Shown: piece after piece, positions 59,038-64,000 of the stretch | Layout: each line of letters begins with the position of its first letter | Numbering within the stretch: the stretch's first letter is position 1 | Assembly: GCA_963922205.1 (NCBI GenBank) | Contig: CAWUHX010000229.1 | Span: forward strand, 372,001 to 436,000 | From: Romanomermis culicivorax | Taxonomy: Eukaryota > Nematoda > Enoplea > Mermithida > Mermithidae | Reading direction: 5' to 3' | Length of the DNA stretch: 64,000 nt | Position numbers and translations under genes: made by a program | The notes under the pieces: generated by a model | The model's database searches: none | What the model saw: the letters and a program-made list of their open reading frames with translations, nothing else | Told to the model about the DNA's origin: nothing

Positions 59038-60714
59038 TTGAAGGAAAAGACAGAATACCAGTCAAGATCTTCAAGAAGAGTTCGAACAGACTCTTGTAGC
59101 AAAAGTACAAAATCTCTTTCAGAACAATTTTCTGACATTGCAAAAGAAAGTAAACAATTTGTTCTTCAAAAAATGGCTGAGGATGACGCCACTCAAATTG
59201 AACAGACTATACAAAGGGCATTGCATAATGCAATGGACCCCTTGGCTAGGCAGTTACAAAATATTGATATTAAACTAGAAAATCCCCAGGCTCCAGTGCA
59301 GAACATAGCGAATGGGAGGCCGCCAATATGGGCAAACCCTATGCTTAGTTTACGCCCTTTACAGCCATTTTCTGGGTCATTTGGTGACTCATTTTCTGAA
59401 TGGGTTGATAAATTAGATCAGTACATGGTTCTCCAATGTGTACCAGATCAAGCTGATGACTACAAAAAGGCATTTTTGGAAGCTAATTTGAGTAGTTCAG
59501 CTTTATCTACCTTCAGGGAATTGAAGCGAGGACCACATCCACCAAAGAGTTATGCTGATTACATACAACAGCTGAAAAACTATTATCCAGATGGGAGAGA
59601 TGCAGATGTCTATCAGCAGCTCATCAACGATCGAGAACAGAAAAGATCTGAGACTGTGACTGAATTCTTGGAACAACTTCGCAGATTTAGCAGATCTGCT
59701 TATCCAACACTGACTGATAATGCACGTGATAGCATAATAAAACTGATTTTCGTTAGAGGACTACAGATGTCCATAAGGGATAGTATAAAATTTCGGGAAT
59801 TCACCACGTTAGAAGATGCTTTAAAAGCAGCTCGGTTTGCAGAGTCCCAGCCGTTTAGGGAAGATTTAAGATCAACTTCTCATACTGCTAATGTTGTTTG
59901 TGGAAATCAATCATATTTTCAGAAAGAAACTCACGTCCACAACAGCAAGAATATGTTGTCACAAATACAACTTTTACGTCAAGAGTTTGAAGCGAAACTC
60001 GCCCAAATACAAAGCGCCACACAGCCTATCATGTTTCGATGTGACATCTGCCATGGGGGACATCAGAGGTCACAATGCATATCGCCATGCCGGCATCGCT
60101 CTCAATCAGGGCATCCGAATAGAGATTGCCCTCTGTTAAAAAGGCAACCAATACAACAAACAGGTAATTTTGTGCTCAATAATGACTATAAGCAAAATCA
60201 AAGGTACAATAACTATGATAAAACTCAGCCCAATTTGCAGACAAAGTATAATAGTCGAATGAGAAAGACTAACAACAACAATTTTACTGAAAGTTCTTTA
60301 GGAGTTTTCACAGAAAATGATATAGATGATGAAGATCTTTTTCATCAATTTGTTCACAGTCAGAATGATGCTCCATATAACTGTGATCATATTAATTCTA
60401 TAAATTTTTCAGTATGGACCACTACTTGCATCTGTAGTGCTTGCCCAGTCCACAATCCGGCGCAAGTTGTTTGGCGTCCACAGGTTATGCCAACTGCACC
60501 CGCTACACCAAAAGTGGTGGTAGCAAAGCAACCACCAGTGAAGCCACAAGTGGTTCAAAAACTGATAAAGAAAAAGCTGAAGAAGTTGACAACACAGCCA
60601 AAATTGTTCATGCAGGCGCCTATCCAAGCCACAGCTGTACAAGAACAAATGGTTGTGGAGCAAACGGCACCGATACCACCGCGATGTGCTAATACACCGA
60701 CACCAGCTATGTAG
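59038..60714 (+). CDS. gag: Ty3/gypsy gag
   Basis: An open 558-codon frame; the ATG at 59173 (MAEDDATQIEQ) may be the real start because the first 45 residues are just polar. The capsid region has MDPLARQLQNIDIKL, PMLSLRPLQPFSGSFGDSF, WVDKLDQYMVLQ, KKAFLEANLSSSALSTFREL and FLEQLRRFSRSAYP. A nucleic-acid-binding region at 60040-60129 has degenerate zinc knuckles: the first is CDICHGGHQRSQC, one residue short of CX2CX4HX4C, and the second, CRHRSQSGHPNRDC, has Arg in place of its second Cys. The tail is P/V/K/Q-rich with KKKLKKL. The frame ends in TAG but stays open afterwards (see 60715-60936). The envelope starts only 4 bases after that extension. Confidence 0.85.
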   Translation: MKEKTEYQSRSSRRVRTDSCSKSTKSLSEQFSDIAKESKQFVLQKMAEDDATQIEQTIQRALHNAMDPLARQLQNIDIKLENPQAPVQNIANGRPPIWANPMLSLRPLQPFSGSFGDSFSEWVDKLDQYMVLQCVPDQADDYKKAFLEANLSSSALSTFRELKRGPHPPKSYADYIQQLKNYYPDGRDADVYQQLINDREQKRSETVTEFLEQLRRFSRSAYPTLTDNARDSIIKLIFVRGLQMSIRDSIKFREFTTLEDALKAARFAESQPFREDLRSTSHTANVVCGNQSYFQKETHVHNSKNMLSQIQLLRQEFEAKLAQIQSATQPIMFRCDICHGGHQRSQCISPCRHRSQSGHPNRDCPLLKRQPIQQTGNFVLNNDYKQNQRYNNYDKTQPNLQTKYNSRMRKTNNNNFTESSLGVFTENDIDDEDLFHQFVHSQNDAPYNCDHINSINFSVWTTTCICSACPVHNPAQVVWRPQVMPTAPATPKVVVAKQPPVKPQVVQKLIKKKLKKLTTQPKLFMQAPIQATAVQEQMVVEQTAPIPPRCANTPTPAM

Positions 60715-60936
60715 CAGAATGATATAGCCAACCTGCAGCACAAGATCTTAATTACCAATGACGAAAATGAAAAGCAACGTTTGCAAAAACATACGCAAAA
60801 GCTGGAGGATCAATTATCAGCAATGATAATCCAAAGTAAGACACCCTTCTTTATTGCTTTGTTAACTCTGTTGGCAACGATTCTATTACAGATTAGAATC
60901 CCCTGTAAGCGCAAAGCAATGATCCATCAAATCTGA
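60715..60936 (+). CDS. in-frame extension of gag after TAG: helix plus membrane segment
   Basis: Directly after the gag TAG the same frame stays open for 73 codons to TGA at 60934. It encodes a helical segment (ANLQHKILIT, EKQRLQKHTQKLEDQL) followed by FFIALLTLLATILLQI, a membrane-spanning-type segment, and a basic end RIPCKRK. The stop context is TAG CAG. Either the TAG is a mutation of a Gln-type codon and gag is normally 631 codons with a C-terminal membrane anchor, or it is read through. Copy B has a comparable helix (21781-22029) just before its envelope. Confidence 0.55.
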   Translation, partial: QNDIANLQHKILITNDENEKQRLQKHTQKLEDQLSAMIIQSKTPFFIALLTLLATILLQIRIPCKRKAMIHQI

Positions 60937-60939
60937 CAC

Positions 60940-61425: not shown

Positions 61426-62650
61426 CTTCATGGGATGGAAACACCATTGTAAGTGATCTGGGTGATGTAGGAAATTGCAAAGCATCATCTGGTCAATGTC
61501 TCAATCAAAATGGGGTAATCATCTGGAATGGACCATCTTTTAAGGATGTGTGCCCTTTGGAGCTAAAAGGAAATTACTCTGCCTATATGAGGGGCGAGTT
61601 TTTCATCATTGAAGAACTACAAGGTGCGTTCAAACTCAAGAATGCCTATAGAAAATGTGCAGAATTAAAATCAGCACTGCAAATGTATCAAGGTATTGTT
61701 GTCACACTTAACAGCTATAGATATAAAATTGAAAAGTATGAGAAATACTTGTCCACAGCCACACTTCCAGAAGACACTGACCCAATCAATTCGAAGCTAA
61801 ATTTCTTGCAGTTCCAAATTCGGGAATCAGCAATTGCTAATTTTCGTTATTTATGGCTTGAACTTTGTCATCAAGCTCAAAGGCAACTTGATCTAACATA
61901 GCAATTTTTGCATCTAGACGCAACACTTGGCGCACGGTCATTCTTGCAAAGAACTGACATTGTAGCTGAGTTTACGGGGGATGCATTGACTATTTGGCCA
62001 TGTAAACAAGTTAATGTTACAAAAATTTACTACGACTACAAAGTGAACCATATGTGCTTCAAGTATCTTCCTGTACAGATCAATGACACAATCTTCTTTG
62101 TGTCACCAGGATGAAATGACCTGTAGGGCTTTAGTCCAGAAGTTGACTGTTTTCATCACATGATAGGAATATTCAAAAACAAGTCAACATGGACTACAGT
62201 GTCAGGTCCAACACATGTAACAAAAGTTCCGCTGGAAATGGTGTGGAGAGGACACTATAAAGTTTTCCAGTTCAATTCACCTTCTATTTTCCATGACAAA
62301 TTAAGCACAGTACCAATCGATTTTGTTTTTCTTAAACAATATATCTACAAAACACAACAGCTAAACAGCATACTGTATAATTTGGTAAACTATACATCCA
62401 GTATGTCACTGCAGCCACAAGCAATTTACCAGGTTATCTCTGGAACAGGGGCTCTCGTAAAGGCCTCTTTGGAGGGCACAGGCGATGCTATGAAAAATGT
62501 GCTAATTGGGACGCATAATAAACTATCGTCTGGCTTGAATACACTTTTGCGAGGCCCACTACAATTACTGCTGAATATTATTGTAAGTTTGGCAGTCATG
62601 ACTGCAATCGGATATGCATGCTACTTGTTTTTGCTTTATTACAAAGCAAA
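61401..62650 (+). pseudogene. env: envelope-like glycoprotein, C-terminal part with TM segment
   Basis: Continuing in the frame beginning at 61401: VASWDGN, IVSDLGDVGNC, GQCLNQNGVIIWNGPSF, VCPLELKGNYS, a helical stretch with ELKSALQMYQGIVV, then TAG at 61899. The same frame continues with VNVTKIYYDYKVNHMC and INDTIFFV, TGA 62112, TAG 62124, then FLKQYIYKTQQLNSILYNL, a small-residue-rich SGTGALVKASLEGTGDAM region and the membrane segment QLLLNIIVSLAVMTAIGYAC (about 62560-62640) with basic KAKQKGGHG after it. Sequons: NYS, NVT, NDT, NYT. Three stops lie in frame and the rest is clean; no stop separates the TM from the protease. Confidence 0.7.
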
Positions 62651-64000
62651 ACAAAAAGGAGGACACGGAAGATTTAGTTTGGAACAACCTCCTGTGGTAC
62701 CAAATAATACTTCTGATGGTTTAGGTACAGCACTACTTCGTTTGATACGCTTGCAAACACATAAAGCTGAGCAACCAGGATCAACAGCTCAAAGAAACGT
62801 ATTTTTCCAAAATAGCAAAAAAGGAACTGAACCTACTGTTACAATTGGATCTTGCAATGTTGTCAACAGTAGCAATATTCATCAGATGCGCACGCCTCAT
62901 GCTGTCTTTATGATTAATAGTCAATTATCAGCCACAGCCTTGATCGATTCAGGTGCAGTTTACTCATTGCTAGATTCCAAAGTTGCTGCACAAATAAAAA
63001 ACTTGAACATTATTAAAACAAATGCACAACCAATAGCCGCTAATGGTCTGCAAATTGATCTATGTGGAGCTGCATATGTAAATGTTCAGGCATTTGATAT
63101 AAATGAAACCATATTAGTACAGATTCAGAACAATTGTTCAGCAGATATGGTTCTAGGCACAAATTTTCTAGCTCGATTCCACTCCACTGAGTTCAACTGG
63201 CAGAAATCATACATTAGATTAAATCAACTAGCCATACCATGTATAGGCATGGAGTACAATCCACCATACAAGCGAGGATCAGTAGCACTGAATGCAGATT
63301 TCTTGCTCCAACCAAGAAGTGTCTCAAAAATTTTGGTTCAAGTTTCTCAATTATACAAAATGGTGGACAATATCAAGTTTGAACCAAAGCTTTGCCAAAA
63401 TGGAAAGCAAAATGTCTATTTTGCAGCATCAGTTTCAAAAGTCACTAATAGTAAAATTCCGATACAAGTAATGAATCTAAATCAGTATCCTGTTCAACTA
63501 TACATGAATCAAACAGTTGGCGAAATCAAGTCCTATTCAGAGAAGGAAGTCATTGCACTTAATGATGTGAAGCCTACATTGCAATCTAGAAAAAACATTA
63601 CTGAATGGATAGAACAAAATTTCCAAATTTCTGATAACTTGGACATCAAGTACAGATGTGAATTAATCATGCTCTTAGTTCAGTTTCCATCGCTCTATGC
63701 AATAGATGAGAAGGACACGGGAAAAACTGATCTCGTACATCATCATGTTGATACAGGTGACAGTAAACCTATACAAAAGTATGCCTTCAGGACTTTGCTG
63801 AAGGAAAAAGATATAATTGTTGCAGAAGTTAAAGCTCTTGAAGCAAAAGGCATAATCAAACCAAGTGTTTCACCATGGTCCACCAACATTGTCCTTGTAC
63901 GCAAAAAGGATGGTGGTCATCGGTTATGCATAGACTTCAGAAGCCTAAATCAGGTGACGAAAAAGAATGTTTACCCAATGCCACGTATTGATGACATTTT
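62651..64000 (+). CDS. pol: Ty3/gypsy protease and RT start, fused in frame to envelope; runs off the window
   Basis: The open frame from 62127 passes through the envelope TM and, after a linker of about 100 residues (GTALLRLIRLQTHK), reaches TALIDSGAVYSLL, the retropepsin active site (DSGA at 62946-62957), then AANGLQIDLCG and MVLGTNFLARF, the second protease core block. A pol linker follows with LLQPRSVSKILVQV and FPSLYAIDEK. RT begins with SPWSTNIVLVRKKDGGHRLC, IDFRSLN and KKNVYPMPRIDD at the window edge. No stop occurs between 62127 and 64000. It aligns in order with copy A (6299-7270). No separate pol start codon is evident. Confidence 0.85.

What the first reader, a model, noticed from the sequence alone, without database searches (positions are those of the whole stretch)
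59038..64000. gag - envelope - pol order with envelope fused in frame to protease and RT
Seen directly: after gag comes a signal-peptide-bearing cysteine-rich ectodomain, a TM segment at about 62560-62640, and then, with no stop from 62127 to 64000, a linker, the DSGA protease and the RT fingers. Known: envelope-bearing Ty3/gypsy elements normally place env after pol. Inference: the envelope was captured, or moved, between gag and pol, and PR-RT may be made as the cytoplasmic tail of a membrane protein. That would tether polymerase to the envelope and need only the particle's own protease for release.
Basis: partly seen in the sequence, partly recalled or inferred. Interest (0 to 1): 0.88.

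Follow-up and report, generated by a model that had tools for sequence, protein, structure and literature searches.

The report
Envelope embedded inside a Gag-Pol polyprotein
A family of virus-like jumping genes keeps its envelope (cell-entry) protein in the middle of one giant protein, between the shell protein and the copying enzymes, instead of as a separate gene at the end, and some copies have jumped so recently that their two ends are still identical.

Summary
The window copy (5' LTR 58214-58833, partner just past the window end, 98.2% identical, 4-bp target duplication GTAC) is a damaged member. The host genome (359 Mb) gave 73 matches to its envelope-TM-protease-RT stretch; 35 of 64 full-length matches have no stop. 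In 14 of 14 copies with an open frame of at least 2400 codons and no stop in the match, gag, internal signal segment, ectodomain, TM, protease, RT, RNase H and the integrase core lie in ONE frame (2313-2706 codons from first ATG; 3 of 14 end early in the integrase C-terminus). Gag-env-protease order holds in 25 of 25 upstream pieces fetched; no envelope was matched after integrase in 15 of 15 downstream pieces. LTR pairs are 100% identical in 5 copies, so the layout transposes. The envelope is a Monjiviricetes-type fusion glycoprotein (PF24664, 3e-18). Selection (one usable pair) is purifying across both junctions. Best reading: a Ty3/gypsy-like element making one membrane-spanning Gag-Env-Pol polyprotein, Gag and Pol both cytosolic. 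Translation, topology and processing are inferred. My searches found no description of this gene order in print.

The parts
58210..58213 (.). 4-bp target-site duplication GTAC (second copy right after the 3' LTR, about 67130-67133 in window numbering, outside the window)
58214..58833 (+). 5' LTR, TGTCA...TGACA; the partner LTR ends at G000:C229:439129 (window numbering about 66511-67129)
   Evidence: 98.2% over 619 nt; ends
58839..58851 (+). TGGCGAGGCTGGC, putative primer-binding site; TGGCGAGGCTG follows the 5' LTR also in copies C23, C202, C49, C278, C89
   Evidence: tRNA not identified
59173..60711 (+). gag (Ty3-type capsid, cysteine/histidine-rich end), open in this copy
60712..60936 (+). 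TAG, 73 codons with a hydrophobic stretch (60847-60903), then TGA; these two stops are absent in sister copies C5 and C230
60973..61029 (+). hydrophobic signal-peptide-like segment before the ectodomain; internal to the long frame in intact copies
   Evidence: intact copies
60937..61425 (+). envelope ectodomain, N-terminal frame (QICGASKSGHA after the signal segment)
61329..61901 (+). envelope ectodomain, middle frame (frame change against the previous part in this copy)
61902..62111 (+). envelope core: Pfam BDV_G 2.1e-6 (26.9 bits, cut-off 27), Monjiviricetes_fusion 4.2e-4
62127..62576 (+). envelope C-terminal part, in frame with TM, protease and RT
62577..62633 (+). transmembrane segment IIVSLAVMTAIGYACYLFL
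   Evidence: best hydrophobic segment within 5 residues of the same place in the 21 other copies compared
62634..62891 (+). tail/linker between TM and protease, with an ALL motif (15 of 16 rows) and RTPH-like letters before the protease
62892..63221 (+). aspartic protease, LIDSGAVY at about 62940-62963
63720..64000 (+). reverse transcriptase, start; RT, RNase H and integrase continue past the window
19412..23498 (-). old, decayed relative with the same order on the minus strand: gag 23498-23304 (weak, E 4.7e-4), envelope 21624-20747, then 20513-19412 with TM and protease
6314..7240 (-). third relative: protease end to RT piece (RT onward to about 5846); nothing recognisable as env before it

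Best explanation
It is a Ty3/gypsy-like LTR retroelement family whose envelope, a Monjiviricetes-type fusion glycoprotein, is an internal domain of a single Gag-Env-Pol polyprotein. SHOWN: order LTR - gag - internal signal segment - ectodomain - TM - protease - RT - RNase H - integrase - LTR; one frame in intact copies; no env match downstream of integrase in the pieces examined; recent transposition; conservation of envelope and tail. INFERRED: the unspliced RNA is translated as one chain; Gag is made first on the cytosolic side; the internal signal segment then inserts in type II orientation (N in, C out), as the foamy-virus leader peptide does; the ectodomain enters the lumen; the TM stops transfer; protease-RT-integrase is made back in the cytosol. 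Gag and Pol are then two cytosolic arms of one envelope-anchored chain, which would gather shell, enzymes and fusogen at the membrane in equal numbers; the protease (and perhaps signal peptidase) would later cut the arms free.
For: Genome search: 73 matches, 64 full-length, 35 of these without a stop, 14 of these with an open frame of 2400 codons or more. In 14 of 14, gag and the three env pieces lie in the pol frame with no stop between, and the frame runs on through RT, RNase H and the integrase core. Independent gag search: gag and pol matches report the same frame length at C52 2765, C89 2636, C18 2572, C278 2569, C49 2515, C23 2465, C357 2405 and others. 37 of 75 gag matches have a pol match within 6 kb downstream; the gap is 1337-3109 nt in all 37, room for env in each. 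LTRs 100% identical over 742-887 nt in C278, C130, C41, C51, C382, with 4-bp duplications. Envelope: PF24664 1.2e-10 to 3.1e-18 on 4 natural pieces. Purifying selection, C49 against C357 (dN/dS values given as dN and dS): gag 0.064 and 0.761, gag-env junction 0.199 and 0.882, ectodomain 0.076 and 0.780, env C-terminus 0.041 and 0.956, TM 0.125 and 0.378, linker 0.217 and 0.902, protease 0.055 and 0.647, spacer plus RT 0.104 and 0.744. 14-16 cysteines from the ectodomain start to the match start in the 17 of 21 copies that could be anchored; no ATG at a fixed place before the signal segment in these 17 (nearest -5 to 101 residues).
Against: No RNA or protein evidence. 29 of 64 full-length matches carry at least one stop. 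The 14 intact copies were chosen for their long frames, and 6 of them (C130, C175, C41, C51, C10, C382) belong to one subfamily of near-copies, so independent lineages are fewer than 14. In 3 of 14 (C23, C357, C89) the frame ends 691-730 residues after the match, against 811-848 in the other 11, so their integrase C-terminus is cut or shifted. Splicing that removes or isolates env is not excluded. 38 of 75 gag matches had no pol match within 6 kb in the capped lists and were not examined, so env-less copies are not excluded. Some copies have a further hydrophobic stretch before the signal segment (c1, L003, L004, L007, C89; weaker in C52, C33, C188), which complicates the simple topology. The protease motif is DCGA or DYGA in some copies. 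The linkers of the window copy and the old copy were not alike by shuffle test (357 of 2000 shuffles as good); conservation appears only across the wider set. Selection rests on one pair.
Confidence: 0.7

Rival explanations
1. Alternative splicing: the env part is removed to make Gag-Pol, and Env (or Env-Pol) comes from another message; frame continuity only lets several joins stay in frame.
For: Foamy-virus Pol and Env come from spliced RNA (passages of PMC7828637). P0002, a 1903-residue relative from an unnamed contig, is Gag-hydrophobic-hydrophobic-PR-RT-RH-IN without ectodomain; it could be a spliced transcript as well as a genuine loss. In the window copy a good donor-like site (58874, rank 53 of 6374) lies before gag.
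Against: A simple splice scan showed no acceptor at a fixed place before the signal segment in the 17 anchored copies, and none stood out there in the window copy. A separately spliced env would not need the env-TM-protease frame kept open in 35 of 64 copies.
Confidence: 0.2
2. Separate Gag and an Env-Pol fusion starting at an env ATG.
For: In the window copy two stops and an ATG (60940) separate gag from env.
Against: Intact copies and the sisters C5 and C230 lack these stops; gag to pol is one open frame in 21 of 25 copies with an upstream piece. No ATG at a fixed place before the signal segment.
Confidence: 0.07
3. Rearranged or chimeric single copy, or assembly artefact.
For: The window copy is damaged.
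Against: Same order in 25 of 25 copies with an upstream piece and in an old decayed copy in the window at about 30-41% identity; paired LTRs and target duplications.
Confidence: 0.01
4. Domesticated host gene(s) derived from an envelope.
For: Purifying selection on env.
Against: The 14 intact copies carry the replication domains; 12 of 14 show LTR pairs, 98.3-100% identical, most with target duplications.
Confidence: 0.02

Closest known systems
Errantiviruses and other envelope-bearing Ty3/gypsy elements (gypsy type)
   Same: Ty3-like gag and pol with PR-RT-RH-IN order, LTRs, short target duplication, captured viral envelope.
   Different: Here it is inside the single frame, before the protease, and of Monjiviricetes type.
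Anakin, BEL/Pao element with a chuvirus glycoprotein (PMC7642597, passages seen)
   Same: LTR element with a captured glycoprotein of chuvirus type.
   Different: Anakin is BEL/Pao. PMC10084718 (passages seen) says no clear capture of such glycoproteins by Gypsy or Copia elements was found. The passages I saw do not state where Anakin's glycoprotein lies relative to pol.
Foamy viruses (Spumaretrovirinae; PMC7828637, passages seen)
   Same: Env leader peptide of type II topology, a model for an internal signal segment with a cytosolic N-terminus.
   Different: [quoted passage not shown] the order gag-pol-env is recalled.
Single-frame Gag-Pol retrotransposons (for example Tf1; recalled, no call)
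   Same: All replication proteins in one frame.
   Different: No envelope domain.
P0002, unnamed 1903-residue relative
   Same: Closest outside relative found: one frame Gag-PR-RT-RH-IN, 190/383 identities to the window copy in PR-RT; two hydrophobic segments before the protease.
   Different: Lacks the ectodomain; ancestral absence, loss and splicing cannot be told apart (the three window copies group with support 84/89, drawn as open, P0002 outside them).

Membership tests
Ty3/gypsy (Metaviridae) | Pol domain order PR-RT-RNase H-IN | tested here: met
Ty3/gypsy (Metaviridae) | RT and capsid resemble Ty3 | tested here: met
   RT start to Ty3 Gag-Pol chain 7q5b 1.1e-9; Ty3_capsid 33.8 bits, cut-off 29.1, in copy C202, below cut-off in the window copy. 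No RT tree with reference elements was built.
Ty3/gypsy (Metaviridae) | LTRs TG...CA with 4-6 bp target duplication | tested here: met
   4-bp duplications readable in 9 of the 12 intact copies with an LTR pair in the pieces (not in C23, C89, C10), and in the window copy
Ty3/gypsy (Metaviridae) | tRNA primer-binding site after the 5' LTR | tested here: inconclusive
   TGGCGAGGCTG in the window copy and 5 others; the C130 group and C18 have other letters; tRNA not identified
Errantivirus-type layout | env as a separate frame after pol | tested here: not met
   env before protease in 25 of 25 copies with an upstream piece; no env match in 15 of 15 downstream pieces
BEL/Pao (Anakin) | BEL-type gag/protease/RT families | tested here: not met
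   Pfam scans of gag, PR and pol pieces listed gypsy-type families and no family that I recall as BEL-type
Monjiviricetes (chuvirus/bornavirus-like) fusion glycoprotein | Pfam PF24664 / PF06208 above cut-off | tested here: met
   PF24664 40.5-65.6 bits against 27 in 4 of 4 natural env pieces; PF06208 30.6 and 34.6 bits against 27 in 2 of the 4. Pieces of the old decayed copy matched nothing.
Monjiviricetes (chuvirus/bornavirus-like) fusion glycoprotein | class III fusion fold | not tested
   No structure was predicted; profile A3 matched no solved structure by sequence at E up to 10
Foamy virus-like strategy | type II signal-anchor leader before Env | not testable with these tools
   a hydrophobic segment just before the ectodomain in intact copies; topology needs experiment

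The most novel reading that the evidence does not exclude
A recently active lineage of retroelements in which one transmembrane polyprotein carries shell, fusogen and replication enzymes (Gag cytosolic - Env luminal - Pol cytosolic), so that particle assembly, envelopment and enzyme packaging are coupled in one chain and one cleavage programme. Its ectodomain-less relative P0002 keeps two hydrophobic segments before the protease, which suggests that the membrane hairpin is useful even without the fusogen.
Probability: 0.55. Interest if true: 0.92.

Novelty: new variant of a known kind. Interest (0 to 1): 0.86.

Why it matters
Gag-pol-env order is treated as fixed in envelope-bearing retroelements, and packaging of Pol and Env is explained by Gag-Pol fusion plus separate Env. 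A family with Env inside Gag-Pol gives a natural test of whether the three can be delivered as one membrane-spanning chain, of how a signal sequence works behind a whole Gag, and of how envelopes of negative-strand RNA virus type enter retroelements. It also warns that searches which look for env only after integrase miss such elements.

Tried and rejected
Rearranged-copy, artefact and domesticated-gene readings: rejected on the genome-wide copies. A coiled coil plus TM after gag ('gag-ext') as a general membrane anchor: rejected; only some copies have a second hydrophobic stretch, and its likeness to P0002 is weak (80 of 2000 shuffles as good). Splice-site scan: no fixed site; its weight matrices were recalled, not from a call. 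2A-type recoding: no NPGP motif in the 17 of 21 anchored copies. Lesions concentrated in env of the window copy (p about 0.02 for four lesions): dropped once intact copies and further lesions were seen. Old-copy linker against window-copy linker: not significant. Hits P0004, P0007, P0008, P0011, P0021 and P0046 with a long N-terminus were checked and have IN before RT, another layout. Of 47 related proteins scanned, 24 had a recognisable protease motif before RT and only P0002 had hydrophobic segments 40-220 residues before it; many of the 24 begin too close to the protease to tell. No relatives in viral contigs or genome contigs; no hit for the env middle piece among proteins. The old copy's env pieces gave no Pfam match; the env profiles gave no meaningful solved structure.
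Full report
What is in the window. On the + strand from 58214 lies an LTR element: 5' LTR 58214-58833 (TGTCA...TGACA), putative primer site, gag (first ATG 59173), a cysteine-rich ectodomain with a signal-like segment, TM 62577-62633, a tail, an aspartic protease (LIDSGAVY) and the start of RT at the window edge. The partner LTR lies past the window, 98.2% identical over 619 nt, and both outer ends carry GTAC. The frame 62127-64000 is open for 624 codons, against a maximum of 201 in 60 simulated 64-kb sequences. 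This copy is broken: stops at 60712 and 60934, a frame change within env, stops at 61899, 62112 and 62124, and a shift in RT-RNase H past the window.

A second, old copy. On the minus strand, 23498-19412, a decayed relative shows gag (one weak match, 4.7e-4), env, TM and protease in the same order, at about 30-41% identity. So the order is not a private rearrangement.

The host genome. The window is G000:C229:372001-436000 in a 359-Mb assembly. The 624-residue query gave 73 matches; 64 are full-length and so cross from TM to protease; 35 of those have no stop, 29 have one or more (counts are lower bounds by the tool's own note). Sixteen have an open frame of 2400 codons or more, 14 of them with no stop inside the match. 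For these 14 I took upstream, middle and downstream pieces and looked at each apart. In 14 of 14, gag and the three env pieces lie in the pol frame and the nearest upstream stop is before gag. Downstream the frame runs 811-848 residues past the match in 11 of 14; in C23, C357 and C89 it ends after 691-730, that is beyond the integrase core (which ends at about residue 595 of the downstream piece in C202 and C278) but inside its C-terminal part. The sum of codons from the first ATG is 2313-2706. I took the upstream piece alone of 11 more copies: ten chosen among matches without a stop, and the sister copy C5. Gag-env-protease order holds in all 11, so in 25 of 25; gag to pol is one open frame in 7 of these 11, so in 21 of 25 (not in C59, C445, C147 and C5). 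No env match was found downstream in 15 of 15 downstream pieces (the 14 and the window copy). An independent gag search gave 75 matches; 37 have a pol match within 6 kb downstream on the same strand, with a gap of 1337-3109 nt, room for env in each; the other 38 were not examined, so env-less copies are not excluded. One gag match lies after a pol match within 6 kb (C283). Frame lengths reported for gag and pol agree.

Recent activity. LTR pairs were found in the pieces of 12 of the 14 intact copies, 98.3-100% identical; those of C278 (742 nt) and C130, C41, C51, C382 (887 nt) are identical. Four-bp target duplications are readable in 9 of the 12. C52 and C357 showed no pair inside the pieces; C89's was cut by the piece's edge.

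What the envelope is. The window's core piece already matched BDV_G (2.1e-6, 26.9 bits against a cut-off of 27) and Monjiviricetes_fusion (4.2e-4). Natural env pieces from four copies match PF24664 at 1.2e-10 to 3.1e-18, and two of them PF06208 above cut-off. The X-bearing pieces of the old decayed copy matched nothing. By sequence no solved structure was matched, so a class III fold is inferred from the family, not tested.

The junctions. Just before the ectodomain a strong hydrophobic segment was seen in 9 of 9 copies and in the 17 of 21 copies that could be anchored by the QICG-type motif (C23, C18, C139 and C337 could not be anchored there). In 7 of the 9 it is the only such segment between the first ATG and the ectodomain. 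There is no ATG at a fixed place before it, no 2A motif and no acceptor-like site at a fixed place. After the ectodomain, the best hydrophobic segment starts at residues 146-151 of the match in 22 of 22 copies compared; the 15 with a D[ST]G[ASV] motif have it 86-104 residues after the segment. Of 16 rows aligned, 15 share ALL in the tail and most share RTPH or RTPY before the protease. For the one pair with synonymous divergence in the chosen range (C49, C357), dN is well below dS in gag, gag-env junction, ectodomain, env C-terminus, TM, linker, protease and RT. So both junctions look like translated, selected protein, though the gag-env junction and the linker are among the least constrained parts.

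Protease variants. The C130 group, among the youngest by LTR identity, has DCGA, and C89 has DYGA, instead of DTGA/DSGA. The C130 piece still matches gag-asp_proteas above its cut-off; the C89 piece has only a weak match (0.029). C52 has an additional protease-like domain between gag and env (PF13975 1e-6) as well as the usual one; C33 and C188 have the same spacing. The extra stretch between gag and env of C89 matched no family.

A relative without ectodomain. P0002 (1903 residues, one contig, unnamed source) is Gag-PR-RT-RH-IN in one frame, with hydrophobic segments at 509-527 and 570-588 and the protease motif about 97 residues after the second. It groups with the window family (97/99) but its place relative to env-bearing copies is open. 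It may be an ancestral form, a loss, or a spliced transcript.

How it most likely works. See Best explanation: one chain with two cytosolic arms. The simplest topology needs one crossing before the ectodomain; a signal anchor with cytosolic N-terminus does this, as described for the foamy-virus leader (PMC7828637, passages). Equal numbers of Gag, Env and Pol would follow unless other messages exist. Copies with an extra hydrophobic stretch before the signal segment do not fit this topology without a further assumption.

Literature. Ten full-text searches showed no title or abstract start that describes env between gag and pol; some lists were capped (one search showed 12 of 46 papers, 15 of 215). 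One search asked for six phrasings, among them 'env between gag', 'env upstream of pol' and 'gag-env-pol', and found none in that library, which lacks most subscription papers and preprints. Papers seen: PMC12440569 (abstract and first of five parts: Troyka, a different lineage), PMC7642597, PMC10084718, PMC5408684 and PMC7828637 (passages). PMC10084718 states that no clear capture of Jingchuvirales glycoproteins by Gypsy or Copia elements was found.

Verdict. A real, multi-copy, recently transposing variant of the envelope-bearing LTR element with an unexpected gene order and a single giant frame. Architecture: about 0.95 sure. Translation as one membrane-spanning polyprotein: about 0.7. On checking against the calls I mended counts (25 upstream pieces instead of 24, early frame ends in 3 of 14, unpaired gag matches); the odds did not need to change.

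Noticed in passing
window 56716-57060 and 57714-58163 (+): Two small frames just upstream of the element that look, by recall, like core and minor-capsid proteins of adintovirus/Maverick-type elements; Pfam gave only an insignificant Adeno_PX match (0.45) to the first and none to the second. The LTR element sits just beside them.
   Followed up: partly
L056 and the C130 group (C130, C175, C41, C10 aligned); L055 (C89): Protease active-site motif is DCGA or DYGA instead of DTGA/DSGA, the first in a subfamily with LTRs up to 100% identical.
   Followed up: partly
L017:2143-3489 (copy C52): A second aspartic-protease domain between gag and env, besides the one after the TM; C33 and C188 have the same spacing.
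   Followed up: partly
G000:C283, gag matches at 175665, 184259 and 192857: Three gag matches of equal length about 8.6 kb apart on one strand, suggesting tandem copies.
   Followed up: no
window 24576-24854 and 48725-49330 (+): Two further isolated gag pieces of the same family, 30-33% identical to the window gag.
   Followed up: partly
window 2417-3298 (-): Open frame of 293 codons, above the 201 maximum of the simulated sequences, without any Pfam match.
   Followed up: partly
window 40857-41082: About seven copies of a 31-bp tandem repeat with AAGATCTT and GCAAGCAAGC motifs.
   Followed up: no
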